IMG/VR virus record: IMGVR_UViG_3300028795_000021
Coordinates: 1-25,144 of that record
From: a virus
Length of the DNA stretch: 25,144 nt
Direction: 5' to 3' (one strand)
Below the pieces are notes generated by a model. The model was not told the origin of the DNA, made no database searches, and worked only from the letters and a program-made list of their open reading frames with translations. Numbering within the stretch: position 1 is the first letter of the stretch; every line of letters begins with the position of its first letter. A program made the translations under genes and the position numbers. Shown piece after piece: positions 2,770 to 21,355 of the stretch.

Positions 2770-3978
2770 ATGAATCACGTAATAAACGAAGACGGCGCTC
2801 GCCCTATTAAGATTTGGACTACTGAAGTTGAGGAGTCGGCGCTCAAGCAGCTTAAAAACCTCGCTCGCCTGCCCTTCATAGCCGGGAACGGCGTGGCCTG
2901 CATGCCGAACGTGCACGCCGGCATCGGATCGACAGTCGGAACGGTCATCGCTACAGACAAGGCCATCATTCCGGCCGCGATTGGAGTTGATATCGGCTGC
3001 GGCATGAACGCGGTTCGCTTGTCGCTGAAGGCGTCGGACCTCCCGGAAAGCCTGAAAGATATTCGCAATCAGATCGAGCGCGACGTGCCGCTTGGCGCTG
3101 GTGGCCGCCACCGTAACTCCTATGTTCCTCCCGGTCATGGCGCGGGCCAGCAGCACGCCCTCTGGAATGAATACGCCCGCATCAAGCCATTCGGCGAGGA
3201 CGACCATCTGAGGGCTTTCGAGCGCGCGTGGTTTCAGCTTGGCACGCTCGGATCAGGCAATCACTTCATTGAGATTTGCCTTGATGAGAATGACGACGTT
3301 TGGATCATGATGCACAGCGGCTCACGTGGCACGGGTAACGAGATTGGCCGTCGCCACATTGAGAAGGCGAAGCAGAACATGGAACGGTATTTCGTCTCGC
3401 TTCCCGATGCAGACTTGGCGTATATCCCTGAAGAAACCGAGGATTTCAATAAGTACGTCGAGGCCGTGAAGTGGGCGCAGGATTGGGCGCTTGAAAACCG
3501 CCGCGTAATGATGGACGCGACGATTGCAGCCGTCCGTCGCCATATCGAGAAGCCCTTCACGATTACGCATGAGGCCGTGAATTGCCACCACAACTATGTC
3601 GAGCGTGAGAACCACTTCGGCCGCAATTTGTGGGTCACGCGCAAGGGCGCTATCCGTGCACGTAAGGGCGACTTGGGCATCATCCCGGGCAGCATGGGAG
3701 CGCGCAGCTTCATCGTGAGCGGCAAGGGTAATCCGGAATCGTACTGCTCATGCTCGCACGGCGCGGGCCGCAAGATGAGCCGTACGCAGGCTGCAAAGAC
3801 CTTCTCAGTGGACGATCTGAAGGCGCAGACGGCGGGCGTGGAGTGCCGCAAGGATGCTGGCGTGATTGATGAGGTGCCGGGCGCGTACAAGGACATCGAT
3901 GAGGTCATGGCGAATCAGACCGACCTGGTGGAGATCGTGCACACGCTGAAGCAAGTTTTGTGCGTTAAGGGGAACTAG
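2770..3978 (+). CDS. rtcB: RtcB-type RNA ligase
   Basis: This 402-residue protein is close to the length of E. coli RtcB (408) and spans the whole family fold. RtcB joins RNA 2',3'-cyclic-phosphate or 3'-phosphate ends to 5'-OH ends using GTP and Mn2+. Metal-ligand and catalytic landmarks are present: GVDIGCG (D74, C77), GSGNHF (H165), MMHSGSRG (H182), CHHNY (H274), and the guanylylated histidine in CSCSHGAGRKMSR (H330). It should therefore be active. No rtcA or rtcR is adjacent; it sits in a phage operon of small unknowns. Repair of tRNAs or rRNA cut by host anticodon-nuclease defences is a reasonable but unproven role. Confidence 0.95.
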   Translation: MNHVINEDGARPIKIWTTEVEESALKQLKNLARLPFIAGNGVACMPNVHAGIGSTVGTVIATDKAIIPAAIGVDIGCGMNAVRLSLKASDLPESLKDIRNQIERDVPLGAGGRHRNSYVPPGHGAGQQHALWNEYARIKPFGEDDHLRAFERAWFQLGTLGSGNHFIEICLDENDDVWIMMHSGSRGTGNEIGRRHIEKAKQNMERYFVSLPDADLAYIPEETEDFNKYVEAVKWAQDWALENRRVMMDATIAAVRRHIEKPFTITHEAVNCHHNYVERENHFGRNLWVTRKGAIRARKGDLGIIPGSMGARSFIVSGKGNPESYCSCSHGAGRKMSRTQAAKTFSVDDLKAQTAGVECRKDAGVIDEVPGAYKDIDEVMANQTDLVEIVHTLKQVLCVKGN

Positions 3979-5560: not shown

Positions 5561-5691
5561 AAAACATCTGGACACAGTGCTTCCTCGCGTTCCTTCATGA
5601 CCGATCAAAGTATCTACCCGGCCATCCGTTCTACCCGAAAGACTATGAAACGTTCCTGGCTGATTGGTGCAACGATTTTTTCAATGACTAG
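5557..5691 (+). CDS. 44-residue hypothetical protein at the operon end
   Basis: This short gene has its ATG overlapping the preceding stop (ATGA, 5557-5560) and ends at TAG 5689-5691. The product is rich in aromatics and acidic at the end (FYPKDYETFLADWCNDFFND). Coupling to the upstream gene is the main support. Its stop sits in CTAG, whose other strand is the stop of the terminase gene, so the two operons overlap by 3 bases tail to tail with no room for a terminator. No function can be read. Confidence 0.6.
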   Translation: MKNIWTQCFLAFLHDRSKYLPGHPFYPKDYETFLADWCNDFFND

Positions 5692-8294
5692 ACCTGCTCG
5701 AACATAACGCAGGCGTGCGCATCGGGCATTACGATCGCCTGCAGTTCGTTGCAGAACTTGCGATCGAAGTCGAAGTTCGAGCAAGACTTGCAACGATCCT
5801 CCGTGATTTCCTCGCGCTCGCGAAGAACCTTGTTCAGTGTGTGGTTCTGAGCCATAGCATCTCCAATAACTACCTTCGTACTCTCGTCGCTTGTGTCCGG
5901 GAACAGGAATGCAGTTCCGCCGTGAGCGCGGGCCCAAGCGACGTTCATCAGCATGAAGGCGTAAGAGAAGTGAGGATCGATACCGACCTTCACCACCTTG
6001 CGCCGCATTTTTCGTTCTTCAGCGTCCATTTCAACAATGAGCGCCGTTCGCGTGAAGTGCTTAAACACGCGATCGAGGATGGACGCGAGCGACTTCTCAC
6101 CGCGAATCCCGTTATCGCCGTCGTCCGAGAGCATTTGCAGCAGCCCCTTCGGATCGGGGAAGACCGTAACGTGCGCCGTGATGCGCGCGAGCGCTACCTG
6201 CATGCTCTTGTATTGATCCAGCGTGACCGTGTAGCGGTCTTGCGCCTCTTCGTCGCTCTTGCGCTCTGCCTTCGATGGAACAGCGTCGCCCCAGCGCAGT
6301 GACGCGTCCTTAATGACCGTGTAGCTCGCAAGGAATACGATTCCCTTGTGGCGATTCGCGAAGCGGTGAGCGTCGTTATAGTTCGGCAGCGACTCGCACA
6401 CGCAGACCTTGACGCCGAATTTCTCAATCAGTTCGGAACACCTGGCGAAAGGATCGTCGCTGTAAATCTCCTCTGCGTGGATCAGCGCCATATGGCCCGT
6501 CGGCAGGCGCTCGCAAATGAGGGCGACGTTGAACTTACCCATCTGGTCGATACCCATGAACGTGCCTTTTGCACGATCCTTCCACTGCACGCCCAGCCGC
6601 CTGCCCTCCTCCACGCACTCGGCGAGGATCTCCAGGTTGATCGGGATTTGCGTCGGGTCCGCGTACGGCTTGCCGAGCTTCCGGTTAAAGAAGTTCCGCA
6701 TGTCCGCCGCGTTGTGGTAAGCCTCAATCATTTCCCGGGCGGAAATGGTCGGCGACAGTGTTTGAGGGAAGTGAACCGAGCGATTGACCGCTTCGGGGTT
6801 CTTCGCAATCCACTCGCCGCGCTGTGTGTCGTCAATCCAGCCTTCGCATTCCTTGCACTTGTAACGGTATTCGCCCGTGAGCCCGGCCTCACGCTCGCGC
6901 TCATTCACCCGCGGCGCGGTCGGATCGTACCCAATGCAGGCCGGGAAGTTTTCATCGAGCACCTGCTTCGCGAGGCAGTGCGGGCACTCGGTATGAAACT
7001 GGAACTGCTTCCCCTTTTTGAACCACCAGTGGATATCGCCGTCGGGCAGGTTCGCCGTGGAGCCCATCAGCGTGTACTTCAGACGCGAGGCGGACATACG
7101 CTCGCGGACCTTCTCCATATCCGCGATCACCATTTCCTGCACTTCATCGAACGAGACAACGTCCATCGGGTTCGATTCTGTGGCCGTCTTGCCAGAGGTC
7201 CAGAGAAAGTGATATCGCGACTCGCCGATGTTCCGGGTCAGCACGTTACCGTCGCCGGAAATGCCTGACTCGGCGAGACCTTCCTTCATCAGCCGGCGAA
7301 CGGCCGGAATGGTCCGGACGATCTGCATGAAGCGGTTCGTGGACTTCCCGGACGCCAGCATTTGCGATGGCATGAACATGCCGATCTTCGATGCCGGGAA
7401 GCGCAGGCCAAGGTAGATCATGGCGAGCATTTCCATGACCGTGAACCCTACCTGGGTGCACTTCATGATGATATCGATCCGCTGGTACGCGTCCTTGACC
7501 GTGTGCGGAATCAGGTCATAGATGAAGGCCATGGCCGGGCGGTCATCGAGGCGGAATGGATACCCGTCCACCTTCAGACCTTCGGCACTCAGGCGCTCGC
7601 ACCACTGGCGGAAGGTCTCGTCCGGGCCCACGATCATCTGGGACGGCGTCAGGTCGATTGGCGCATCCACGAACTCGCCAAGACGCTCCTGGCGGAACAC
7701 GTCCAGCGCCATGGTGGAGCGGTCATATTCGACGGCTGCCTGATCGGCGTACTCATTGTCCGTAGCTTTAAGCTGGAAGGTCGCCCAATCCTCCGCAGCG
7801 CCCCTGTAGAGGGCTGCGAACGGGCCGCGCATGCCAACGGGCTTGCCGAAGTACCAAACCCGCCCATGGCGGTTCAGGTGGATGCTTTCATGGACTTCGT
7901 GCACCCCGTCGATTTTTTGAGCGTCATCCACCACGATAAGGTGGAACTCGTCGTAAATCGGCTTAGGGTCATCTCGCGGGATGAACGTGATCGAGCCGCC
8001 ATTCACCAAATCCCAGCGCATGTTATCGAGGCGGCCAGTGGCGTTCGTGATGAGAGGCCGGATCGTTCGCAGTAGTGCGGACTTGGCCTTCTCCACGTCG
8101 TCGCCAGTCGGCAGAACGAGCGCCGTCTTGAAGCCGTGCAGCGCACCGAAATGGGATATGAGCAGCGTAACGAGCGCAAGCGTCGTCTTGCCTGATTCGT
8201 TGCCGCCATGGACAACGTTAAAGCGCGCAGGGCTGCCGAATGCAACCGACTGCGCGCCAAAGAGAAGCGGGAGCCGAATCTCATGCTGCTGCAC
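5688..8294 (-). CDS. terL: terminase large subunit with two tandem ATPase modules
   Basis: An 868-residue DNA-packaging motor. Residues 1-212 look like a terminase ATPase: Walker A GGNESGKTT (31-39), Walker B HLIVVDD (118-124), and the usual module end TDNEYADQ...VFRQERLGEF. Residues 225-570 resemble a lambda gpA-type ATPase: K278-CTQVGFT aligns with the lambda KSARVGYS loop, Walker B is VVSFDE (D383, E384), and there are zinc-ribbon pairs C437/C440 and C480/C483. Residues 575-790 are the RNase H-like nuclease with acidic residues D583, E634 and D773. The tail adds C835, C838, C848 and C862. Typical large terminases are 450-700 residues with one ATPase. It starts with GTG behind GAGGGCG. Confidence 0.88.
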   Translation of the reverse strand: MQQHEIRLPLLFGAQSVAFGSPARFNVVHGGNESGKTTLALVTLLISHFGALHGFKTALVLPTGDDVEKAKSALLRTIRPLITNATGRLDNMRWDLVNGGSITFIPRDDPKPIYDEFHLIVVDDAQKIDGVHEVHESIHLNRHGRVWYFGKPVGMRGPFAALYRGAAEDWATFQLKATDNEYADQAAVEYDRSTMALDVFRQERLGEFVDAPIDLTPSQMIVGPDETFRQWCERLSAEGLKVDGYPFRLDDRPAMAFIYDLIPHTVKDAYQRIDIIMKCTQVGFTVMEMLAMIYLGLRFPASKIGMFMPSQMLASGKSTNRFMQIVRTIPAVRRLMKEGLAESGISGDGNVLTRNIGESRYHFLWTSGKTATESNPMDVVSFDEVQEMVIADMEKVRERMSASRLKYTLMGSTANLPDGDIHWWFKKGKQFQFHTECPHCLAKQVLDENFPACIGYDPTAPRVNEREREAGLTGEYRYKCKECEGWIDDTQRGEWIAKNPEAVNRSVHFPQTLSPTISAREMIEAYHNAADMRNFFNRKLGKPYADPTQIPINLEILAECVEEGRRLGVQWKDRAKGTFMGIDQMGKFNVALICERLPTGHMALIHAEEIYSDDPFARCSELIEKFGVKVCVCESLPNYNDAHRFANRHKGIVFLASYTVIKDASLRWGDAVPSKAERKSDEEAQDRYTVTLDQYKSMQVALARITAHVTVFPDPKGLLQMLSDDGDNGIRGEKSLASILDRVFKHFTRTALIVEMDAEERKMRRKVVKVGIDPHFSYAFMLMNVAWARAHGGTAFLFPDTSDESTKVVIGDAMAQNHTLNKVLREREEITEDRCKSCSNFDFDRKFCNELQAIVMPDAHACVMFEQV

Positions 8295-8367: not shown

Positions 8368-8601
8368 TTAGCCTTCCCACGTCTCCGTAGCGTTCACCCA
8401 TGCGGATTCGGACGCTTTCAGCCAGACGGAATTGACTTCCACGTATGTGAAAGTCTTCTGGCGCACGACCGCGCCCTGTTCGATGCACGTGTCGGTCAGC
8501 ATGTTGCCGTTTGCGTCGTACGTGTATTTGTGCGGCAATGAGTTCGGATCGAACGTGATGCCATTCGCATCCTTGACGACGATGCGTACGCTTGCGGACA
8601 T
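8368..8601 (-). CDS. small beta-rich hypothetical phage protein
   Basis: This 77-residue protein starts at ATG 8601 behind an excellent AAGGAG. It reads as an all-beta domain: alternating hydrophobic strands (SVRIVVKDA, KTFTYVEVNSVWLKA) and a YTYDANGNMLTDT turn that superficially resembles an RHS/YD repeat. A single YD-like turn in 77 residues is not an RHS protein. Position just upstream of terminase and small size suggest a virion or packaging-associated protein, but this is inference. It lies downstream of the adhesin terminator, so it and terL probably have their own promoter in 8602-8680. Confidence 0.72.
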   Translation of the reverse strand: MSASVRIVVKDANGITFDPNSLPHKYTYDANGNMLTDTCIEQGAVVRQKTFTYVEVNSVWLKASESAWVNATETWEG

Positions 8602-8680: not shown

Positions 8681-8709
8681 AAAAAAGCCCGCACTCGGCG
8701 GGCTTAAAA
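8681..8709 (-). terminator. intrinsic terminator of the adhesin gene
   Basis: AAGCCCGC (8685-8692) pairs with GCGGGCTT (8698-8705) around a 5-base loop. Reading the minus strand, the stem is followed by a run of T (8686-8681). It lies 16 bases past the adhesin stop, in the correct direction. The A-run on the other side (8706-8709) may also let it work from the plus strand. Confidence 0.88.
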
Positions 8710-8724
8710 GGCACTACGGGGAAT

Positions 8725-10038
8725 TTAGAACTGGCGACCGGCTGACACTACTGCGCCGAAGTCACCACGGCTATTCGTAGTGATCGAAGCCTTCATGACC
8801 CACTTGTCATCCTGCGAGACGCGCGAGTAGCCAGCAGCAAAGCCCGTCGCGCCGTGATAGGTCGATCCAGCGACTGAAACCATCGACTTGCCCGGGCCGG
8901 TCGGCTGCGGCAAGCCAGCCACCGCGAGAGCCGAAGCAACGCCGCCGTACATATCCGAGCGCAACTTGCTGATATCCGACTCGGCTTGGTTGAACTGCTG
9001 ATCCGTATAAGCGTTCGCCTGCCCAAGCGTAATAGCCGCCGACTGGTTCGTGTAGGCGTTGGCCGAAGACATGGTCGCAGCGTTATCCACAACGCGCTGG
9101 TTGGCTTCGGCGACGATTGCCGATGCATCGCTCGCCTCTTGCGCTTGCAAGCCAGCCTCTGCGGTTTTAGCCCGCGTCGCTTCGCTTGACACCCCTGCGC
9201 TCAGCGTCGCCTCTGCCGCCGTGGCGCGAGACGCCTCCTTCGTCACCGCGACCGTGCCCGCTGCTGCCGCCGCACCCGCTGCCGTAGCTGCGTTTCCTGC
9301 TGCTGCCGCTGCTGTTCCTGCTGCCGTGGCCGTGGCCTTGGCCGAAGCTGCTGCCGCCGCCGCAGCCGTCGCCGTCGCGTTAGCGGTCACTGCCGTGCTG
9401 TTAGCTGCTGCAGCCGCCGCTCCTGATTGAGCCGCGCTGGTGATGGCTTTCTGCGCATCCGTCTCGGCCTGTGCTGCGGCTTGCTGCACCGTGTAAAGCT
9501 GCGAGCCGTTCACCGCGTCAGTGCTGGTCGCATTGACGTTGCCAGCCGTCACATTGATGATTTGACGCGTTACACCGTTGCCGCCGACCGAGACAACCAT
9601 CGCTTGGCCGCCATCCGTCGAGCCGTAGCCGAGCGCCACCGATCCCAAGCCGGTCGCTGACGTGAATGAGCCCAGCGCGAGAGCTACTTCACCCGTCGCG
9701 TTTGCCTTGTAGCCTACCGCAGTGCGGTAAGAGTCTTGCGAGTCATCGGACGCGCCGAGTGGGCTAGGTGCGCCAGTGTTGGCATATGTGCCAATCGCCG
9801 TATCGCCGCGACCCTGAGCCTGCGAGGCGTAGCCGAATGCTGCAGCATACTCACCAGCGATATTCAGACGCGCCGTGCCGCCAGCAAGCGGGCCATTCGG
9901 ACCCCAACCCGTATCGCCTCCACCGACTGCGACGCCCTCCTGATTGGCCGATGAATTATCGCCGAGCGTGACCGATGATTGTGCGTATGCCGAGACTGCG
10001 AACATTGCGACTGCGAAAGCGATAAGAGTTTTTTTCAT
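8725..10038 (-). CDS. YadA-like trimeric autotransporter adhesin
   Basis: This 437-residue protein has the full order of a trimeric autotransporter. Residues 1-20 are a Sec signal peptide (MKKTLIAFAVAMFAVSAYAQ). Residues about 60-145 are YadA-head beta-roll repeats (AFGYASQAQG, TAVGYKANATG, ALGSFTSATG, ALGYGS). A head-neck connector follows (STDAVNGSQLYTV, 172-184), then a very Ala-rich coiled-coil stalk (about 185-355) and a C-terminal YadA anchor barrel (about 356-437) ending in Phe. It should sit in the host outer membrane as a trimer and promote adhesion or aggregation. It has its own promoter (10110-10138) and terminator, so it looks like an independently expressed cargo gene. A ribosome-binding site AGGAAAA precedes the ATG. 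Confidence 0.93.
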   Translation of the reverse strand: MKKTLIAFAVAMFAVSAYAQSSVTLGDNSSANQEGVAVGGGDTGWGPNGPLAGGTARLNIAGEYAAAFGYASQAQGRGDTAIGTYANTGAPSPLGASDDSQDSYRTAVGYKANATGEVALALGSFTSATGLGSVALGYGSTDGGQAMVVSVGGNGVTRQIINVTAGNVNATSTDAVNGSQLYTVQQAAAQAETDAQKAITSAAQSGAAAAAANSTAVTANATATAAAAAAASAKATATAAGTAAAAAGNAATAAGAAAAAGTVAVTKEASRATAAEATLSAGVSSEATRAKTAEAGLQAQEASDASAIVAEANQRVVDNAATMSSANAYTNQSAAITLGQANAYTDQQFNQAESDISKLRSDMYGGVASALAVAGLPQPTGPGKSMVSVAGSTYHGATGFAAGYSRVSQDDKWVMKASITTNSRGDFGAVVSAGRQF

Positions 10039-10109
10039 GATTAGTTTTCCTAAAGAGTGCAGCGTTTTGGTTTGCCCTTTCAGGCGGTCCGTTTCGTTAC
10101 GGTGAAGCG

Positions 10110-10138
10110 AGTTTATTCTGCGCTAAACGCAGAGTCAA
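10110..10138 (-). promoter_or_regulatory. adhesin promoter with palindromic operator in the spacer
   Basis: On the minus strand TTGACT (10138-10133) and TAAACT (10115-10110) are 17 bp apart and 72 bp upstream of the adhesin ATG. The spacer is almost entirely the palindrome TCTGCGTTTAGCGCAGA (10133-10117). A protein bound there would compete with RNA polymerase. The promoter at 13041-13069 has the same architecture in the same register. Confidence 0.6.
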
Positions 10139-10145
10139 CAGATAA

Positions 10146-10162
10146 ATTGCGTTTGAAGCAGA
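10146..10162 (+). promoter_or_regulatory. second operator-like site upstream of the adhesin promoter
   Basis: The reverse complement of 10146-10162 is TCTGCTTCAAACGCAAT, matching the plus-strand form of the 10117-10133 site at 12 of 17 positions. It is centred 29 bp upstream of that site, which would allow paired binding. The rest of the 10039-10230 gap holds the promoter and a CGCGCTATGCGCG palindrome (10201-10213), with no gene seen. Confidence 0.35.
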
Positions 10163-12449: not shown

Positions 12450-12812
12450 TTAACGCTGCGGTTGCTTGCGGAAGTTGGCGCGGGGCTGCGTCTTGTAAGG
12501 CGGGACTTCCTGCAGGTCCGCCATGACATGCCAGATATCCATGTAGGCGTTATGCAGGTGATGATCCCGCGTGCTGCCCTTGAAGTTCGTGTAATGAATG
12601 TCTGTCAGCGCCTTCGCGATAACCTGACCCACGATTTCGCGCTTGATGAAGGCGCGGAACTGATAGTCACGGCCCGGAATGGTGGTCACTTCGACATCCG
12701 AGCCGAAGGCCGCTTCCAAATCGCCCTTGCGGCGAGCACGAACCATTAAGACGGACGGGTCACGGTCGGATGCGACGATGGACAGAAAGCTGTTGTTTTG
12801 GCAGATCCACAT
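12450..12812 (-). CDS. conserved hypothetical protein of the MWxxxNxxFLSIVA type
   Basis: This 120-residue protein starts at ATG 12812 behind GAGGGAA. It shows the pattern of a widespread uncharacterised family: MWICQNNSFLSIVASDRDP, then LMVRARRKGDLEAAF, an xEVTTIPGRDYQFRAFI strand pair, DIHYTNFKGS, and HNAYMDIWHVMADLQ. Homologues occur in phages, plasmids and bacterial genomes, with no experimentally known role that I can name. The tail (PYKTQPRANFRKQPQR) is basic and probably disordered. The family is recognised from memory of its motifs. Confidence 0.8.
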   Translation of the reverse strand: MWICQNNSFLSIVASDRDPSVLMVRARRKGDLEAAFGSDVEVTTIPGRDYQFRAFIKREIVGQVIAKALTDIHYTNFKGSTRDHHLHNAYMDIWHVMADLQEVPPYKTQPRANFRKQPQR

Positions 12813-13099: not shown

Positions 13100-13669
13100 T
13101 TACAGAGGGCGCATGACGGTCCCGAACTGGCGGAATGCGTCGCTGAAGGACTGCGAATAGCTCAGTTGATCAAAATAAAGGAATGCCTGCCCGCGCGTGT
13201 TGCCGGTTACCTTCTTGCCATCGGCGTTATAGAACTGAATGCGATGGTCCGTGAAGCAGATCGCGCGAGCCTGCGCCGCCAGGGCGCGAAACATCCGGGT
13301 CTCGGTCGCGTTGTTCACCAGAACGATGCCTCGCTCAAAGCGCTCGTACGCGAGGGCCTCCAGAAAGCGCGTGGCGGCGTCCAGAGCGGGCTTGCCTGAG
13401 TACGGCGGGTTCATCCAGCAGGAACGCGTCTTGGGCCACGATACGCCGCGCGTGGGGTTCGGATTATCGAGCGTGCAATACTGGTCCGCGCGCACGAGCC
13501 TCTGCGCATCGTCGCTGCTGTACGGGTCAAACCCGATGCCATCTAGGACCTCACGAGCGGCCTCAATGTACTGGGGCGGGGTGAACCACGCATCGGAATC
13601 AAGCCGCTTGACGCCCGGCGAGCTTCCCACATAGCCGAGCGCGGCCGGGTTATCGGCGCGGCGCATCAT
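13100..13669 (-). CDS. phage DNA N6-adenine methyltransferase (Dam-like)
   Basis: This 189-residue protein matches the phage DNA N-6-adenine-methyltransferase family: DAWFTPPQYIEAAREVL (26-42), GFDPYSSDDAQ (46-56), CWMNPPYSG (84-92; NPPY is the catalytic motif IV), then GIVLVNNATETRMFRAL and RIQFYNADGK. It should transfer a methyl group from SAM to N6 of adenine in DNA; the recognition site cannot be read. Length is typical. Its ATG overlaps the stop of the Nudix-kinase gene (ATGA), so it is translationally coupled to that system. Protection from host restriction is a common role, but the coupling is notable. Confidence 0.9.
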   Translation of the reverse strand: MMRRADNPAALGYVGSSPGVKRLDSDAWFTPPQYIEAAREVLDGIGFDPYSSDDAQRLVRADQYCTLDNPNPTRGVSWPKTRSCWMNPPYSGKPALDAATRFLEALAYERFERGIVLVNNATETRMFRALAAQARAICFTDHRIQFYNADGKKVTGNTRGQAFLYFDQLSYSQSFSDAFRQFGTVMRPL

Positions 13670-15180
13670 TTGAGCTTGAGCAGGTCGGCGCGACGGGCGA
13701 TCAGCTTGCGGGAGAGTTCCGCCTTCTGTTCCGGGTTGCCGGGGCCAAAGTCCATGACAAGGGACTTGATCTTGTCGGGGCTCACGCTCGCGACCTTTTT
13801 CACGCCGTTGAGCAGTTGCTTATGCGAGATTCCGCCGAATACAGATGACGCCTGCGCGTTCGTGCCGTCGGTCAGCGTGTCGAGTTCGCCCACCTTGTCG
13901 CCGAAGAGCTTGCCCTTGGGCTCGCCCTGCGCGCGGAACACCAGCGAGCCGCCCACATCCACGCGCACCGCATCGCCCTTGTCGTCTTCGAGCAGGTTGT
14001 CATGCGCCAGCCCGACGACATCCCAGTTAGCGAGCCACGCATCCACCGCGAAGCCATCCATGACGCTCGCGTTGCCTTCGCCGAATTCCCGGAGCTTCTG
14101 CAGGCCCGGGACGATCTTCGACGCAATGGCCGTACGATCGCCAACGGTGACTTCCTTCAGTTCCGGGACCTTCACGCCGGCCGCTTCGTACAGCTTGCCC
14201 GCGAGGATCTCGTTGCGTGCGATAGCGGTCGATTTCGGGACCTTCACATACCACTCTTGCCCGTCCGGGTCCTTGAAAAATCCGCCCGGGTTCGAACCAC
14301 GTTGCTGGCCGACCTTCTTCCAGTCGTCCACCGACTCGCGCAACGGGCCGACCGGCGCCAGCCCGGCCAACGTGGCGAGCGTGCGATCGTACTGGCGGTT
14401 CGCCGCGGCGTGAACCTTGCCTGGCGGAACGAGCAAGATCGCCTGCGATTCCCAGCCGCAATCGGTTGGCGTGCCACCTACGCGCTTGGCCGTGTAGTAG
14501 CGAGTCATCGTCTGCCCGCGCGCCACGTCGCCAATTAAGCCCGTGATTTCCACCTGCAGGCCGGACTCCTCAAACGCCTCTTTGATGGCCGTCGCCTGCA
14601 GGGAAATGCCGTCATCGGCATGGCCTTTTGGGAACGTCGTGGCGTAGCCAGCGAAGCCGTTGGACGGCTTGACCATCCACACGCGACCGTCCGGCTCCTG
14701 AATGAAGACGCCGGCAGCCGGTTCCTTGCCCTTCAGATCCATCTCGGGTTCGTCCAGGTCGTGCATTTGCCCTGGCACGTGATCCCAGCCTTCGATCGTC
14801 TTCGGATGATCGGTCCAAGGCGCAAGCGCGACGCCATTCAACGAGGCGGGCGCGTGGCCGCCTGGCGTGAATGTGGCCGTCTCATGAGGATCGTTCCACG
14901 TATCCGTGGCGGATTGCTGCGAGGGGTATTTGACGACTACGTGCTTGCCTTCGTCGTCGCGCTTGGGATGGTTGATTGCGCCTTCCGGCATGCCCCAAGC
15001 GGGGTGAAGCGCATCCTTTCCGGACGGCTTCGCGGCGAGCTTCTCGGCGGACTGCTTACTGCCAGTCAGCGAGTTGTGCCATTGGACTTTTTTGATGACC
15101 TTAGTGTCATGCGCTTGGACGACAGTGCCGTCTTTGCGCGTGAAGGTCTTTACGTGAGCCTTGCTGAAGAGGAGAAGCAT
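13666..15180 (-). CDS. Nudix hydrolase fused to a HipA/PI-kinase-like domain
   Basis: This 504-residue protein has three parts. Residues 1-30 carry TFTRKDGTVVQAHD, shared with the 1409-residue neighbour. Residues about 155-255 are a Nudix domain, cleaving a nucleoside diphosphate linked to X: its box runs from G186 to L208 with K200-E-A-F-E204-E205-S-G. The usual first Glu is Ile192 and Arg is Lys, so activity may be altered. Residues about 293-470 are kinase-like: K313 in WYVKVPK, D380...N385-W-D387, D394-N395, and VDVGG (D408). This follows the HipA/PI-kinase catalytic order and closely matches the neighbour's domain. ATG 15180 lies inside a hairpin with AAGGCG as ribosome-binding site. Confidence 0.82.
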   Translation of the reverse strand: MLLLFSKAHVKTFTRKDGTVVQAHDTKVIKKVQWHNSLTGSKQSAEKLAAKPSGKDALHPAWGMPEGAINHPKRDDEGKHVVVKYPSQQSATDTWNDPHETATFTPGGHAPASLNGVALAPWTDHPKTIEGWDHVPGQMHDLDEPEMDLKGKEPAAGVFIQEPDGRVWMVKPSNGFAGYATTFPKGHADDGISLQATAIKEAFEESGLQVEITGLIGDVARGQTMTRYYTAKRVGGTPTDCGWESQAILLVPPGKVHAAANRQYDRTLATLAGLAPVGPLRESVDDWKKVGQQRGSNPGGFFKDPDGQEWYVKVPKSTAIARNEILAGKLYEAAGVKVPELKEVTVGDRTAIASKIVPGLQKLREFGEGNASVMDGFAVDAWLANWDVVGLAHDNLLEDDKGDAVRVDVGGSLVFRAQGEPKGKLFGDKVGELDTLTDGTNAQASSVFGGISHKQLLNGVKKVASVSPDKIKSLVMDFGPGNPEQKAELSRKLIARRADLLKLK

Positions 15181-15717: not shown

Positions 15718-18700
15718 TTACGCCTTTTTCTTCATCAGGTTATCAACATAGGTCGGGTCGGGCGGCAACATCAGCAGTTCGAGTTCGAAGCGCTGCCCGT
15801 TGGAATTCCCGTGCTCCACGTCAGCGACCATTTTACGTGACATAACCATGAAACGCGCGCCCGGTAAAGTGGTTACTTCCATTTCGCTCTTAAAACTTCC
15901 GGATGCGAACGAATTCAGGGCCTTCGCGCCTTCGGCGTAGCGAATGGTGATGCGGTCCTTGCCGAAGTGCTTGGTCGCCGTGTCATGGTACGAGGTACAC
16001 ATCGAGCCCGGGTTCTGAAAAACCAGCCCTTCCGGCGCGTCCATGAATTGCTTGACCATTTCCGGCGCGAAGCTAATCCACTTGCTGATCGTCGTGCCCG
16101 CTTCCTGCGGCGCCGCGTTTTTGTACAGGTCTGTCAGCACTTCGCGCGTCTTGTTGCCGCCGTGGTCGGTTTCCTTGCCATCGCGGTACGGGTTGTTATA
16201 CGAACCCGAACCCTGCACGCCGGAAATGAACGACTTGACGCTAGACGGCAGCTTACTGTGCGCTGCCTGAGCCGCCGCGATGGCCGCAGAGGACAGCTTT
16301 TTGACGGCCGGAATGAACTTCGCGGGCGAATCGGCCACGCCCAGCGCGATCCAGAACCCAAGCTGCTGGTTCTTCGGGGCCATCTCCGTGGTCTTGCCGA
16401 AGTCATGCGGCTTAAACGCGGCAGACAGCGACGCCAGTGTGCTCGCCGACTTCGTCTCGAACGGCCGCAATGCCTCTGGCGGGTTCGCGATCATGTCCAG
16501 GTACGACACCAGATTCGTGTGGTAGTCCTGCACGTACTTCGACGGGTGCTCGTCAATCGACTTCTTTTCGCCGATGGCCTCACCAGTCATCTTATCGACA
16601 GGCTGGAATTTGTACGCCTTCAGCGCCGTCAGGTTGCCCGACTTGGCGATATTCAGCAGTTCCTGCTCGTCGGCGATGTTGCCCTTGACGTATGCCTTCT
16701 CGCTGATCGGCTTGCCCGTGCCCTGCCAGTTCATGTAATCGTGCGGGCTCGGCAGCAGCGATGCGTCCACCGTCAGCGCGGCCGGGTTCGGCTTCACCTT
16801 CGCAGCGGCAGCCGAACCTTTCTTCGGCTTCGCGGCGTTCGGATACTGCTCGCTCATGTTGTGCTTGCGGGCGATCAGCTTTTCGGCGAGGCGCGTCTTC
16901 TCGCTTTCCGAGCCCGGGCCGAACTCCATTACCACGCCTTCGATTTCATGGTCGGGGATGTCGGCGATCTTCGCCACAGATGCCGCGATGTCCGCGGCGC
17001 TCATTTTCCCGAACACTGCGGCCGTGTTGGCGTTCTTCGACGGGTCGAGCATCGTCTTCAGTTCGATAACGTCGTCTTCGAACTTCTGCTTCTTGCCGCC
17101 CGCACCGCCGTACAGCAGCGCACCGCCTGCATCGATGCGCACAGCCGAGCCATCCTGCTTGAACAGGATGTTGTCGAAGCCCTTGCCTGCAGCCGGGTTG
17201 TTACCGACCGTGTCCCAGTTCGCCAGCCATGCGTCAGCGCCGAAGCCGGACAACAGCCCTTTCGCTTTGCCCTCCAGGAGAGCTGACTTGTTCGCCACCG
17301 CGCCGTCAACGATCTTCGACGCGAGGCCGATCTTGCCGCCCTGGTTGATGAGTTTCACTTCCGGCACTTCGACGCCAGCCAGCGCATACAGCTTCGTTGC
17401 CACCAGTTCGTTCTTCGCGACCTTCTCGCCACCGGCCGGGAACTTGACATACCACTTCTGGCCGCTCTTATCGGTGTACGTGCCGCCCGGGTTATAGCCG
17501 CCCTGCGGACCTACCTGCGTCCAGTCATCCACGGACTCCGTAGCGGCCGGCTGAGCCGTTCCCATGACCTTCTGAGCCTTGGGTACGGCCTTGGGCGCAG
17601 CAGACTCGCCACTGCCCACTGCGCCAGCGCCAATCACGGCGTCGTGCAGTTGCTTGCCGTATTGCGCGAATGCGAGCGCTGCCGGGCCGTGCGCCTGCTC
17701 AGTCGGACTCAGGGCAATAAGCCCGTTATATTTGACCTTGCCTTCCGGCGTGATCGACAAAACCTTACTGAGGCCCTCTGCGCCCTGTGTGGCCGCGACG
17801 AGGTTCATGTTTTTGATGTGGTTCTTCAGCTTGACCGAATTCTTACCGGTAATCTTTGGCACCTTCAGGCCAGCGACGATCTTCGCTGCTTCGGGCCCAG
17901 TCTTCGCGGCAGGCTCGTCACCGCCCACCTTCACCCAGTGCCCGTTCTTCAGCACGAGCATGCCGTCAGCGCCGCGCTTCGTGTCGCCTTCCTTGGGCCC
18001 AGTCGCCGCGGCGGCTGCCTTATCCGGAACCTCAACGGTGATCGTGTCCGAGTTTTGGTGGACATAGCCGTTATTCTGCTTCTCGGCAATCAGCTTCGAC
18101 TGCGCTTGGTAGGCAGCCAGTTCCGTGCTGAATTCCTTCGTGCTAACCGAGCCCTTCGAGCCGATCTTCCCGTAGTGCACGCGCATTGCATTGCCGACTA
18201 CAGAGACGCCCCAAAACTTGTTATGCCCCTCTTCGGTGTTGTGATAGAGATGCTGCGTGACGTTTTTCTTCACCATCGGGACGGCAGCCGCTGGCGCGGC
18301 CTTTCCTTCGAGATGCGCGATCGCCTCGGCTGCGTACTTCTCCAGCTTTCCGAAGTTGGTCGCGGCGGGTTGCCCCGCGCCAATCATCGTCGCTTGGTCC
18401 ATCAGCCCCTGGAGGTTGCCCGCGTTCAGTTCCTTCTCGATCTTGTCCGCAATCTGCGAGGATGTAATCGAGGAGAGTTGCGGCTTTACGGGCTTCGCGC
18501 CGGGCTCAGTCGGCTTCACGGATTCGGCGACCTTGGCTTCGAGCGTCGCGATGTGCTTCGCGGCATAGTCAGCCGTCGGGCCCATGCCTTCCTTCGTCGT
18601 GTAGGCGTGGATGTCCTTCAGCGTTTGCAGGTCACCCTCTTCGAGCGCCTTATCGGCGTCTTCCTTCAGCCCCGCATCTACGCCCTGGTGCGCAGGCATC

Positions 18701-19947
18701 GGCGTTTCGCCCTTCGCCTTTTCGCCAGTCTTCCACTCGTACAGCGCGGCGGCATAGTCCTTCAGCTTCGCCATTTCGCCATCGGCACCGGCAAGCGTCG
18801 CCATCTTTTTCAGTTCTTCGAGGAGGCCGCTTTCAGCCCACTCCGCGACGGCCTTTGCCGCCTGCTTGTAGGCGGGATCAAGGTCATCAGGAATGGCAGG
18901 CGCGGCTCCCTTGGCCTTCGGTGCGTCAGGATTTTCAGCAGGCTTAGCCTCTGCGGAAGCGGCAACCACCTTTTGCGGCTCAGCAGCGGGTTGGGGCTTG
19001 GTCTCAGCAGCAGGAACACCCTCACCTGTCAGCGCGGCGTGGCCGCCCATTTTCTGGCCCGGCGTCACCGTGTGCTTAGAGCCCATGGCGGCCAGCGCTT
19101 CGTTCGCGAGCTTCGCGGCCTGCTTGCCGTACGTGTGCGTCGGATAGCCGTGATTCAGGATCGACTTTTCATCGCCCGTAATCAGCGCGTGCGCAATCCC
19201 GTCCAGCTTCTTTTTCTGGCCGGGCGTGATGTGATGGTCGGCGGGCAGCTTTGCCTTTGCGGCTTCGATCTTGTCGATAACCGCAGCCTTTGCATCGTTC
19301 GACGCTCCGAGATCCTTGCCGGTCTGCCCCTCGGGTTCCGGCTTCGACTCAGGCGTGGGTTCATCCTTGGGCTCAGGAACGGTCTCTGCGACCTCCGGCT
19401 CCTCTTTGGCCGCAACTACCTTCGGCGGCTCGGCGGGAGCCTGCTGCGGGGCTTGCTGCTGCTTCGGATTGGCTGCCTGCCAGTCGAACCACTGCTGACC
19501 GAACGCCTCCTCCTTTCCTGCCGCCTTGAATTCCGCCTCAAACTGAGCCTGCTTAGCGACCGGCAGCGAATCGAACGCCTTCCATTCGCCAGGCGTCGGC
19601 TTCTCGCCGGCGAGGAGTTTCTTTTTCAGCGAGTTGGCGCGCGAGAGCATCGATGCCTGGCTCTGGATCGCCGTCGCCTCCTTCAGGACGTGAGCCACCT
19701 TGTGATCGTGTGGCATCGCATTGAACCAGTCCTTTTTGGACAGCTTCTTATGCGCTTCCTTTTCGGTGTAGTTGCCCTGCCCTGAGACGGCCTTATGCTC
19801 GTCGTGGTCGGTCGAGACATTGACCATGGCGTAGTGGCCTTGCACCACCTGCCCGTTGCGCTTCGTGAAGCCCGGAATCCAGACCTGTTTCTTCGTCACC
19901 GCCTTCATGAAAAGAAGGACGGGCTGCCGTGCGTGAATGTCGTTCAT
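15718..19947 (-). CDS. 1409-residue multidomain protein: repeats, WGR, kinase-like and ADP-ribosyltransferase-like domains
   Basis: I chose ATG 19947 (GGGGTG upstream); 50 codons of open frame before it cross a terminator. Reading order: N-terminal GFTKRNGQVVQGH (26-38) as in the Nudix-kinase protein; a disordered Pro/Glu stretch (150-215); three helical repeats (about 355-405, 425-472, 497-548); a WGR domain (about 566-632, FWGVSV...VHYGKIGSKG), known from PARPs and bacterial Mol regulators; a kinase-like domain (about 815-1030: WYVKFP, DAWLANWD, FDNILF, RIDAGG); and a C-terminal ADP-ribosyltransferase-like domain (about 1230-1395) with a CTSYHDTA segment at the STS position and the ExE motif SEMEVTTLPGARF (E1355, E1357). 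The first-strand Arg is not obvious. No secretion signal is seen. It is probably an effector, possibly virion-delivered. Confidence 0.78.
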   Translation of the reverse strand: MNDIHARQPVLLFMKAVTKKQVWIPGFTKRNGQVVQGHYAMVNVSTDHDEHKAVSGQGNYTEKEAHKKLSKKDWFNAMPHDHKVAHVLKEATAIQSQASMLSRANSLKKKLLAGEKPTPGEWKAFDSLPVAKQAQFEAEFKAAGKEEAFGQQWFDWQAANPKQQQAPQQAPAEPPKVVAAKEEPEVAETVPEPKDEPTPESKPEPEGQTGKDLGASNDAKAAVIDKIEAAKAKLPADHHITPGQKKKLDGIAHALITGDEKSILNHGYPTHTYGKQAAKLANEALAAMGSKHTVTPGQKMGGHAALTGEGVPAAETKPQPAAEPQKVVAASAEAKPAENPDAPKAKGAAPAIPDDLDPAYKQAAKAVAEWAESGLLEELKKMATLAGADGEMAKLKDYAAALYEWKTGEKAKGETPMPAHQGVDAGLKEDADKALEEGDLQTLKDIHAYTTKEGMGPTADYAAKHIATLEAKVAESVKPTEPGAKPVKPQLSSITSSQIADKIEKELNAGNLQGLMDQATMIGAGQPAATNFGKLEKYAAEAIAHLEGKAAPAAAVPMVKKNVTQHLYHNTEEGHNKFWGVSVVGNAMRVHYGKIGSKGSVSTKEFSTELAAYQAQSKLIAEKQNNGYVHQNSDTITVEVPDKAAAAATGPKEGDTKRGADGMLVLKNGHWVKVGGDEPAAKTGPEAAKIVAGLKVPKITGKNSVKLKNHIKNMNLVAATQGAEGLSKVLSITPEGKVKYNGLIALSPTEQAHGPAALAFAQYGKQLHDAVIGAGAVGSGESAAPKAVPKAQKVMGTAQPAATESVDDWTQVGPQGGYNPGGTYTDKSGQKWYVKFPAGGEKVAKNELVATKLYALAGVEVPEVKLINQGGKIGLASKIVDGAVANKSALLEGKAKGLLSGFGADAWLANWDTVGNNPAAGKGFDNILFKQDGSAVRIDAGGALLYGGAGGKKQKFEDDVIELKTMLDPSKNANTAAVFGKMSAADIAASVAKIADIPDHEIEGVVMEFGPGSESEKTRLAEKLIARKHNMSEQYPNAAKPKKGSAAAAKVKPNPAALTVDASLLPSPHDYMNWQGTGKPISEKAYVKGNIADEQELLNIAKSGNLTALKAYKFQPVDKMTGEAIGEKKSIDEHPSKYVQDYHTNLVSYLDMIANPPEALRPFETKSASTLASLSAAFKPHDFGKTTEMAPKNQQLGFWIALGVADSPAKFIPAVKKLSSAAIAAAQAAHSKLPSSVKSFISGVQGSGSYNNPYRDGKETDHGGNKTREVLTDLYKNAAPQEAGTTISKWISFAPEMVKQFMDAPEGLVFQNPGSMCTSYHDTATKHFGKDRITIRYAEGAKALNSFASGSFKSEMEVTTLPGARFMVMSRKMVADVEHGNSNGQRFELELLMLPPDPTYVDNLMKKKA

Positions 19948-19984
19948 GAGCACCCCATTTGAATATGGGAAGCATGGCGTCACG
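19948..19984 (-). promoter_or_regulatory. leader of the 1409-residue gene with CGTGACGC element
   Basis: CGTGACGC (19984-19977 on the minus strand) lies 28 bases before the ATG region. CCCAT/ATGGG (19968-19953 region) forms a small hairpin whose 3' side contains the GGGG of the ribosome-binding site. No clear sigma70 promoter is seen between the terminator at 20004-20028 and this start, so a different promoter class or readthrough must supply transcription. Confidence 0.35.
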
Positions 19985-20003
19985 ATCACGCGGTACAGCA
20001 ATG

Positions 20004-20028
20004 AAAAAAGCCCCGGGGTTGCCGGGGC
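20004..20028 (-). terminator. intrinsic terminator of the coiled-coil gene
   Basis: GCCCCGG (20010-20016) and CCGGGGC (20022-20028) form a perfect 7-bp stem with loop GGTTG. On the minus strand it is followed by six T (20009-20004). It lies 32 bases past the stop of the gene at 20060-21355 and separates that unit from the 1409-residue gene. Confidence 0.9.
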
Positions 20029-20059
20029 CTTGGTTACCTGATTGGTAGCTGCTAGATAA

Positions 20060-21355
20060 CTATCCGATTGCCACGTGAGCCGATACCTCATCAGCAATCA
20101 CGTCAAAGCAGGCGCGCAACGTGTCGAAGTCCTTCGTCTTTCCGAAGATCATTTGGCGACCGTTCTTAATCGCCGTCGCGAGCGTCTCTTTGCTCACCGT
20201 GAGCGGGCGTAGTTCCATGTTGCCGGGCGTGCCGACTTGGACAATCGGAGCGCTCTCGGACTTAGCATCGCTCGGCGTTTCTGGAGCGAAGTAGCTCAGA
20301 GCGCCCTCTGCGAAGTTGGCCCATTCGAAGCACGAGTTATCGCGGTTCCAAAATGCGCACTGCACGAGGTCGCCGATGTTCGTCACCGTCATCTTAGGCG
20401 CGTGGCGCATGCCCTTCAGTGCAACGGTGTCGCCCGCAGCCAGAACGTGAAAATCAGGCGGCAGTTGTGCGCGCTCGGCTTCCAGTTGATTGATGCGCTT
20501 CTCGGCTACCGCCAGATCGCGAACGTACTGCTCGTTCGCGGCGCACAGTTTCTTATTGTATTCGTCCGTGATGCGCCATGCAGACTGCTCGCGATGGAAT
20601 TCAATGATGGAAGTGCGCTGGTTTTCAATGCGATCGCGCAGTTGGCGCTCACGTGTTGCGGCTTGCGTGTCCGGATGCGCAGCGAGTGCATTCATCAGGC
20701 TCTTGACGTTGAGCGCCAGCCTCTCGTTCTCTTCCTGATAGCGCCCAATGCTCTCGCTCTGCGTTTCATTGCGGAGCGTCAGCGCCTTTATTTGCTCAAC
20801 GGCCTCGTCAAGATCGGCTTGGAGCGCCGTGACGCGCTGCTTCATATCAGCGCGCTCAACGATACGCTCTTGCTCAACGCCAGCGGCGCGCTCGCGGATG
20901 GCAACCACGGCATTGTTCGCAGCCCTCACGTCCAATTCGAGCGAGTCACGCTTGCCCTTCACGGCGTTGTAACGTTCTTCCCACGTGAGGTTTGCCGCGC
21001 GTTCGTTGTTCAGACGCGTATTCAGACGCTGATTTTCGTCAGCGAATTGCTTGTTCGCGGCACGGACCTCGCCGTCGAGACGATTCAGTTCAACATGCTC
21101 AGCAACGATTTGCTCAACGTCGCGCATGAAGTCAACCAGCGGGAACGTCGCCGCGATTATCGAGCCGCACCTGTCGAAAGAGTAGTCCTTCGTGCGGTTC
21201 TCATACGCCGCGAGATTTATTCCGACCTTCTCAACGTACGTTGCTCGCACGCCGAACGTGCCCTTCATGATGGCGTCAATCACCGCCGCGAACTGCACGT
21301 CATTCAGAAGGCGAACTTCATTCAGCACGCGGTCCAACTTTGAATTTCCTGACAT
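20060..21355 (-). CDS. coiled-coil protein with C-terminal DUF2158-like domain
   Basis: This 431-residue protein has a small helical N-terminal domain (1-75), a long coiled coil (about 80-298, heptads rich in Glu/Arg/Ala/Leu), and a compact beta domain (302-356) with FHVLAAGDTVALKG...PKMTVTNI...VQCAFWN. The last matches the DUF2158/YodC pattern of small SH3-like domains (GDxVxLKxGGPxMTV). A helical tail follows (KETLATAIKNGRQMIFGKTKDFDTLRACFDVIADEV). DUF2158 has no firm function, so its fusion to a coiled coil suggests a scaffold or regulator. It is a single-gene unit with promoter/operator at 21489-21533 and a terminator downstream. Confidence 0.78.
   Translation of the reverse strand: MSGNSKLDRVLNEVRLLNDVQFAAVIDAIMKGTFGVRATYVEKVGINLAAYENRTKDYSFDRCGSIIAATFPLVDFMRDVEQIVAEHVELNRLDGEVRAANKQFADENQRLNTRLNNERAANLTWEERYNAVKGKRDSLELDVRAANNAVVAIRERAAGVEQERIVERADMKQRVTALQADLDEAVEQIKALTLRNETQSESIGRYQEENERLALNVKSLMNALAAHPDTQAATRERQLRDRIENQRTSIIEFHREQSAWRITDEYNKKLCAANEQYVRDLAVAEKRINQLEAERAQLPPDFHVLAAGDTVALKGMRHAPKMTVTNIGDLVQCAFWNRDNSCFEWANFAEGALSYFAPETPSDAKSESAPIVQVGTPGNMELRPLTVSKETLATAIKNGRQMIFGKTKDFDTLRACFDVIADEVSAHVAIG

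What the first reader, a model, noticed from the sequence alone, without database searches (positions are those of the whole stretch)
8725..10138. Phage-borne complete YadA-type adhesin with its own control
A signal peptide, head repeats, neck, coiled stalk and membrane anchor are all intact, so the product is a host-surface protein and not a virion fibre. It sits alone between its own operator-controlled promoter and an intrinsic terminator, next to terminase. This fits a lysogenic-conversion cargo gene that changes host adhesion, aggregation or phage adsorption.
Basis: partly seen in the sequence, partly recalled or inferred. Interest (0 to 1): 0.75.

Follow-up and report, generated by a model that had tools for sequence, protein, structure and literature searches.

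The report
Surface adhesin carried by a phage-plasmid
A soil phage that appears to live in its host as a plasmid carries an intact, selected gene for a sticky trimeric protein that should be displayed on the surface of the infected bacterium, so the virus can probably change how its host sticks, clumps or admits other phages.

Summary
Window 8725-10038(-) encodes an intact 437-aa YadA-type trimeric autotransporter: signal peptide, YadA head, neck, Ala-rich stalk and full membrane anchor. It lies between a sigma-70-like promoter and an intrinsic terminator, separated from terminase by one 77-aa gene. It is no chimera: four other contigs are identical across both junctions, and an 89%-identical copy sits at the same site in another phage (dN/dS 0.12).

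Two things change in the reading. (1) The promoter is not private. Its palindrome fills the 17-bp spacer of at least seven promoters in this phage group (six counted against 0.017 expected), so the adhesin belongs to a phage regulon whose regulator is unknown. (2) The lifestyle can be inferred. The contig joined to this one by an exact 93-bp end overlap carries a CI repressor, ParA, and a Rep_3 initiator with iterons, but no integrase was found. That fits a phage-plasmid.

The slot upstream of terminase holds different exported proteins in relatives. Complete adhesins also occur in the Burkholderia jumbo phage FLC9 and in other large viral contigs, some with collagen repeats.

Best reading: regulated host-surface cargo of a temperate phage-plasmid. 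Display, phenotype and lysogen expression are untested. New variant of a known kind.

The parts
8725..10038 (-). trimeric autotransporter adhesin (YadA-type), 437 aa
   Evidence: dN/dS 0.12 against the L008 copy
9979..10038 (-). Sec signal peptide (residues 1-20, MKKTLIAFAVAMFAVSAYA-Q)
   Evidence: sequence; crude signal-peptide scan; conserved in L008
9604..9978 (-). head region with YadA head repeats (residues 21-145)
   Evidence: Pfam PF05658 at 114-140; strongest constraint, dN 0.007 against dS 0.22
9433..9564 (-). neck / start of coiled stalk (residues 159-202)
   Evidence: Pfam PF05662; UspA1 and other TAA necks in the PDB
9004..9432 (-). Ala-rich coiled stalk (residues about 203-345)
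   Evidence: sequence; length differs by 7 aa in L008
8728..8910 (-). YadA membrane anchor / translocator (residues 377-437)
   Evidence: PF03895, full profile; Hia anchor 3emo, 2gr7
10110..10138 (-). promoter TTGACT-17 bp-TAAACT
   Evidence: conserved in L008
10118..10132 (-). palindromic operator CTGCG-TTTAG-CGCAG filling the promoter spacer
   Evidence: same arrangement at other promoters, 6 against 0.017 expected, one more on the adjacent contig
10147..10161 (-). second, degenerate operator-like site (CTGCTTCAAACGCAA; CTGCGCCAAACGCAA in L008)
8685..8705 (-). intrinsic terminator AAGCCCGCCGAGTGCGGGCTT-TTTT
   Evidence: a similar terminator ends the slot in L008, L011 and L015
13049..13063 (-). 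second promoter of the same operator family in the window (TTGCAT-17-TAGAAT), upstream of 12450-12812
8368..8601 (-). conserved 77-aa gene between the cargo slot and terminase
5688..8294 (-). terminase large subunit (GpA-type), defines the phage group
10231..10794 (-). DNA methyltransferase upstream of the cargo gene (a different gene in L008)

Best explanation
The gene is a cargo ('moron') gene of a roughly 90-kb temperate myovirus that most likely persists as a plasmid (phage-plasmid). It encodes a complete type Vc secreted adhesin. SHOWN by sequence: intact architecture, purifying selection, its own transcription unit, a shared operator-promoter, absence from nearly all relatives, and a CI/ParA/Rep_3-iteron contig joined by an exact end overlap. 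INFERRED: the host Sec and BAM machinery exports and trimerises it, and the stalk and head are displayed on the infected or lysogenic cell. INFERRED: a phage or host regulator binding CTGCG-N5-CGCAG in the promoter spacer gates its transcription together with other phage units, so it acts when the phage programme calls for it and not as constitutive cargo. Most likely effect: remodelling of the host surface, by autoaggregation or adhesion (about 0.45), by blocking adsorption of competing phages (about 0.3), or other (about 0.25). The host is probably a member of the Burkholderiaceae.
For: Domains and PDB relatives. Identical in four other metagenomic contigs and 89% identical in L008. yadA dS 0.45 equals TerL dS 0.44, with dN/dS 0.12. 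Alternative exported proteins in the same slot of relatives. Operator-promoter family: 6 sites against 0.017 expected, none in 791 kb of more distant relatives, plus one on G415. The last 93 bp of L010 (identical to the window over 10.3 kb) equal the first 93 bp of G415. G415 carries HTH+S24 CI, ParA and Rep_3 with iterons and TTATCCACA, and no tyrosine integrase was detected. Relatives are temperate: 15 of 19 have a Phage_integrase, and one is a Rhodovastum plasmid with RepA. Cellular relatives are Burkholderia/Paraburkholderia adhesins.
Against: No expression or surface data. Operator control may mean silence in lysogens. The regulator is unknown: the cI-cro gap of this phage and of G003 lacks CTGCG palindromes and shows GTTGC..GCAAC-type ones instead. 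The join to G415 rests on one 93-bp contig-end overlap. Host assignment is by similarity only.
Confidence: 0.62

Rival explanations
1. Classical lysogenic conversion: the gene is on in the quiescent lysogen and gives the bacterium adhesion or aggregation.
For: Own promoter and terminator, cargo slot, purifying selection and a phage-plasmid lifestyle.
Against: Its promoter is occupied by an operator shared with other phage units. The same palindrome serves as an immunity-region operator in unrelated temperate phages, which would predict repression in lysogens.
Confidence: 0.2
2. The adhesin is made early in infection mainly to block adsorption of competing phages or of sister virions to the infected cell.
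For: Regulated promoter; complete adhesins also in FLC9, a cultured Burkholderia jumbo phage, and in its syntenic relatives; the slot holds other exported proteins in relatives.
Against: No receptor evidence; YadA-type proteins are chiefly known as adhesins.
Confidence: 0.25
3. Virion fibre: a YadA-like structural protein attached to the particle.
For: YadA-domain structural proteins are found in virions of some cyanophages (PMC9146016).
Against: Signal peptide and full outer-membrane anchor; not in a tail module; own terminator; absent from close relatives with otherwise collinear genes.
Confidence: 0.04
4. Host gene caught by a chimeric assembly or a recent transduction accident.
For: GC3 (0.65) is lower than in neighbouring phage genes (0.72-0.79).
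Against: Four identical contigs across both junctions; a diverged copy at the same site with the same promoter and terminator; low dN/dS.
Confidence: 0.01

Closest known systems
Trimeric autotransporter adhesins (type Vc; YadA, UspA1, Hia, Burkholderia BpaC)
   Same: Signal peptide, YadA head, neck, stalk and C-terminal anchor
   Different: Short (437 aa), Ala-rich stalk, encoded by a phage under a phage-type operator
Prophage-borne Eib immunoglobulin-binding adhesins of E. coli (from own knowledge, not tested here)
   Same: Complete trimeric autotransporter carried by a temperate phage
   Different: Different phages (lambdoid), hosts and head; Eib phages integrate
YadA-anchor genes in N4-like phages (PMC10654107) and yadA homologues in Salmonella phages FSL SP-058/-076 (PMC3728262)
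   Same: Phage-encoded YadA-anchor or YadA-like proteins; in the Salmonella phages away from tail genes
   Different: Unrelated and, for the Salmonella phages, reported as virulent; no shared slot or operator was described
Burkholderia jumbo phage FLC9 gp240 (BDD79759.1) and related large contigs L101-L111
   Same: Signal peptide, stalk, neck where detected, and anchor; own terminator-like hairpin downstream
   Different: Jumbo phages; longer stalks, several with collagen repeats instead of a YadA head; FLC9 gp240 is annotated only as 'hypothetical protein'
Phage-plasmids (P1-type lifestyle; review PMC11652158)
   Same: Phage structural genes with Rep_3/iteron origin, ParA and CI-type repressor
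   Different: A ~90-kb PHB04/ST4/Touem01-like group in which other members have integrases

Membership tests
Trimeric autotransporter adhesin (type Vc) | N-terminal Sec signal peptide | tested here: met
   MKKTLIAFAVAMFAVSAYA; sequence and crude scan, no dedicated predictor available
Trimeric autotransporter adhesin (type Vc) | head, neck and coiled stalk | tested here: met
   PF05658 at, and PF05662 above, Pfam cut-off; PDB TAA necks
Trimeric autotransporter adhesin (type Vc) | C-terminal YadA membrane anchor ending in an aromatic residue | tested here: met
   PF03895 1-60/60, last residue F; Hia anchor
Trimeric autotransporter adhesin (type Vc) | trimer displayed on the cell surface | not testable with these tools
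   needs expression
Phage moron | extra gene with own promoter and terminator, absent from related phages | tested here: met
   absent from G003 and the other relatives outside the window's contig group; other genes in the slot
Phage moron | transcribed in the lysogen independently of the repressor | not testable with these tools
   shared operator argues for regulation
Phage-plasmid | phage structural genes plus plasmid replication and partition genes on one molecule | tested here: met
   Rep_3, ParA and iterons on the contig joined by a 93-bp end overlap; contiguity inferred, not shown by reads
Phage-plasmid | exists extrachromosomally in a lysogen | not testable with these tools
   a relative is a sequenced Rhodovastum plasmid
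Virion fibre | part of the tail module, lacks signal peptide and membrane anchor | tested here: not met

The most novel reading that the evidence does not exclude
Phages of Burkholderia-like soil hosts, both phage-plasmids and jumbo phages, use complete trimeric autotransporters (some collagen-like) as regulated infection-stage surface proteins that change cell-cell contact or exclude competing phages. In this phage group a dedicated slot upstream of terminase delivers such exported proteins under a phage-wide palindromic operator.
Probability: 0.35. Interest if true: 0.75.

Novelty: new variant of a known kind. Interest (0 to 1): 0.55.

Why it matters
It would place a host-surface adhesin in the shared regulatory programme of a phage-plasmid and suggest that unrelated large phages repeatedly recruit such adhesins. 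Whether phages use host-displayed adhesins during infection, and not only as lysogenic gifts, becomes directly testable with one gene, one promoter and laboratory strains.

Tried and rejected
Chimera: rejected by independent contigs. Terminase search over 369 genomes of one class for integrated relatives: nothing, and without a positive control uninformative. Genome scan for close cellular homologues with the full protein: only one weak hit. Control by the phage's own CI: not supported, because the cI-cro gaps in G003 and L139 lack the CTGCG palindrome. The viral-collection scans for the operator mixed immunity regions of other temperate phages with probable chance or coding hits (L091, L093, L117, L126). 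The anchor tree does not resolve phage from cellular origin, except for a supported clade of eight jumbo-phage anchors. PADLOC: no defence match for the adhesin. Structure prediction was not run because domain and PDB matches were already clear.

Full report
OBSERVATION. The 437-aa ORF at 8725-10038(-) is intact. Pfam finds the YadA head, the neck/stalk and the whole 60-position membrane anchor, which ends in an aromatic residue as such anchors do. Among solved structures the best matches are the Hia translocator and the necks of UspA1, a Burkholderia BpaC construct and other adhesins. The N-terminus is a textbook Sec signal peptide with a Shine-Dalgarno in front. What makes them credible is conservation: in L008, an 89%-identical adhesin at the same site, the -35, both palindrome arms, the -10 (one base apart) and the terminator are kept while the palindrome's centre has changed.

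NOT AN ARTEFACT, AND SELECTED. Four other IMG/VR contigs (L004, L006, L009, L010) match the window at 99.99-100% over 5.9-17 kb across both junctions. Against L008, synonymous divergence of the adhesin (0.45) equals that of terminase (0.44), and dN/dS is 0.12, lowest in the head. The gene therefore travelled with this phage lineage and was kept functional. Its lower GC3 (0.65 against 0.72-0.79 in neighbouring genes) is compatible with an origin outside the phage.

A CARGO SLOT FOR EXPORTED PROTEINS. The terminase places the phage in the group of ~90-kb phages such as Aeromonas ST4, Pseudomonas Touem01 and Bordetella PHB04. Only the window's own contig group has a YadA anchor; 35 other related records, including the near-complete closest relative G003 (93,887 bp, terminase 85%), have none. 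In the position between the upstream gene block and the conserved terminator/77-aa gene/terminase, relatives carry other signal-peptide proteins: 116 aa in L011, 94-95 aa in L014/L015, and in L017 a three-gene run of 261, 223 and 125 aa. The signal-peptide scan is a crude script, so this is a pattern and not a census.

THE OPERATOR IS SHARED. The 15-bp palindrome (consensus CTGCGYNNNRCGCAG) sits inside the 17-bp spacer of the adhesin promoter. The same arrangement, always with a 17-bp spacer, occurs at another window promoter (13049), at two in G003, one in L008 and one in L014: six in 184 kb against 0.017 expected in order-1 Markov shuffles, and none in 791 kb of more distant relatives. The motif was defined from the adhesin promoter and its L008 orthologue, so four of the six are independent. 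A seventh lies on the adjacent contig G415, and a looser version precedes the exported-protein run in L017. Closely similar palindromes are clustered in the CI/Cro immunity regions of unrelated temperate phages (L115, L116, L119-L122, L125, L127, L128), whose repressors carry a GNLSR-type recognition helix. The CI of this phage has GNLSK, but its own cI-cro gap lacks the palindrome, so I do not claim CI as the regulator.

LIFESTYLE. G003 carries a tyrosine integrase with Arg, His-x-x-Arg, His and Tyr in place, a CI with HTH and S24 peptidase domains, and a divergent Cro-like gene. A search with that CI found contig IMGVR_UViG_3300030617_000012 (G415, 59,144 bp), from the same sample as L010. 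The last 93 bp of L010 are exactly the first 93 bp of G415, and G415 is collinear with the part of G003 that the window group lacks. G415 encodes a CI (79% identical to G003's), ParA and a Rep_3 initiator. Repeats of about 21 bp (TATTGGGACAAnTTCCGRTCA) lie on both sides of the Rep gene, with TTATCCACA beside them. No tyrosine integrase is detected there. A relative of the group is a sequenced plasmid of Rhodovastum atsumiense with RepA. I conclude that the window phage is most likely a phage-plasmid; the join itself is inferred from contig ends.

WIDER OCCURRENCE. An anchor profile found 11 further viral contigs (41-524 kb) with YadA anchors. Most encode a signal peptide, a stalk and the anchor, and some encode a Collagen domain above Pfam's cut-off (L101) or weaker collagen matches. 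Four of them are syntenic with FLC9, a cultured Burkholderia glumae jumbo phage whose gp240 (annotated 'hypothetical protein') is such an adhesin. The 217-kb contig has a tail sheath gene above cut-off. Cellular relatives are mainly Burkholderia/Paraburkholderia adhesins. The anchor tree groups eight jumbo-phage anchors (100/98) and the window with L008 (98/95), and leaves the rest unresolved among Burkholderia adhesins.

MECHANISM. Shown: intact gene, selection, regulated-looking transcription unit, cargo slot, plasmid-type maintenance genes on the joined contig. Inferred: Sec/BAM export, trimer on the host surface, switching by the palindrome's regulator, and effect on aggregation, adhesion or phage adsorption. 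Because the promoter belongs to a phage-wide set, constitutive lysogenic conversion is only one of the options.

KNOWN WORK. Phage-borne YadA-type genes are not new: N4-like phages with PF03895 (PMC10654107), yadA homologues in virulent Salmonella phages (PMC3728262), and YadA-domain virion proteins in cyanophages (PMC9146016). Eib adhesins on E. coli prophages are from my own knowledge. What I did not find in the searched library is a complete adhesin on a phage-plasmid, one under a shared phage operator, or the collagen-repeat versions in large phages; absence from that open-access library is weak evidence of novelty.

Noticed in passing
window 15718-20097(-) and 13666-15180(-): A 1459-aa protein with a WGR domain (the comparable large gene of phage ST4 is annotated ADP-ribosyltransferase) shares a 229-aa segment (45% identity) with the neighbouring 504-aa NUDIX protein; the shared segment looks kinase-like by eye, not tested.
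   Followed up: partly
L101-L111 and L002 (FLC9 gp240): Large viral contigs (mostly 170-524 kb) carry complete trimeric autotransporters, several with collagen repeats, annotated in FLC9 only as hypothetical.
   Followed up: partly
L115, L116, L119-L122, L125, L127, L128: The palindrome CTGCG-N5-CGCAG forms operator clusters in the CI/Cro regions of unrelated temperate phages with GNLSR-type recognition helices.
   Followed up: partly
L017 7474-9540: Run of three signal-peptide proteins (261, 223, 125 aa) of unknown function behind a promoter with a related palindrome, in the same slot upstream of terminase.
   Followed up: partly
G415 (L200:8200-12000) against G003 (L085:3821-4969): At about the same genome position one phage of this group has Rep_3/ParA/iterons and its relative a tyrosine integrase, suggesting an exchange between plasmid and integrative lysogeny.
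   Followed up: partly
window 2770-3978(+): RtcB-type RNA ligase gene on the opposite strand to the late genes.
   Followed up: no
L008 747-1553(+): The methyltransferase upstream of the adhesin is replaced in L008 by a different, possibly methyltransferase-like protein.
   Followed up: no
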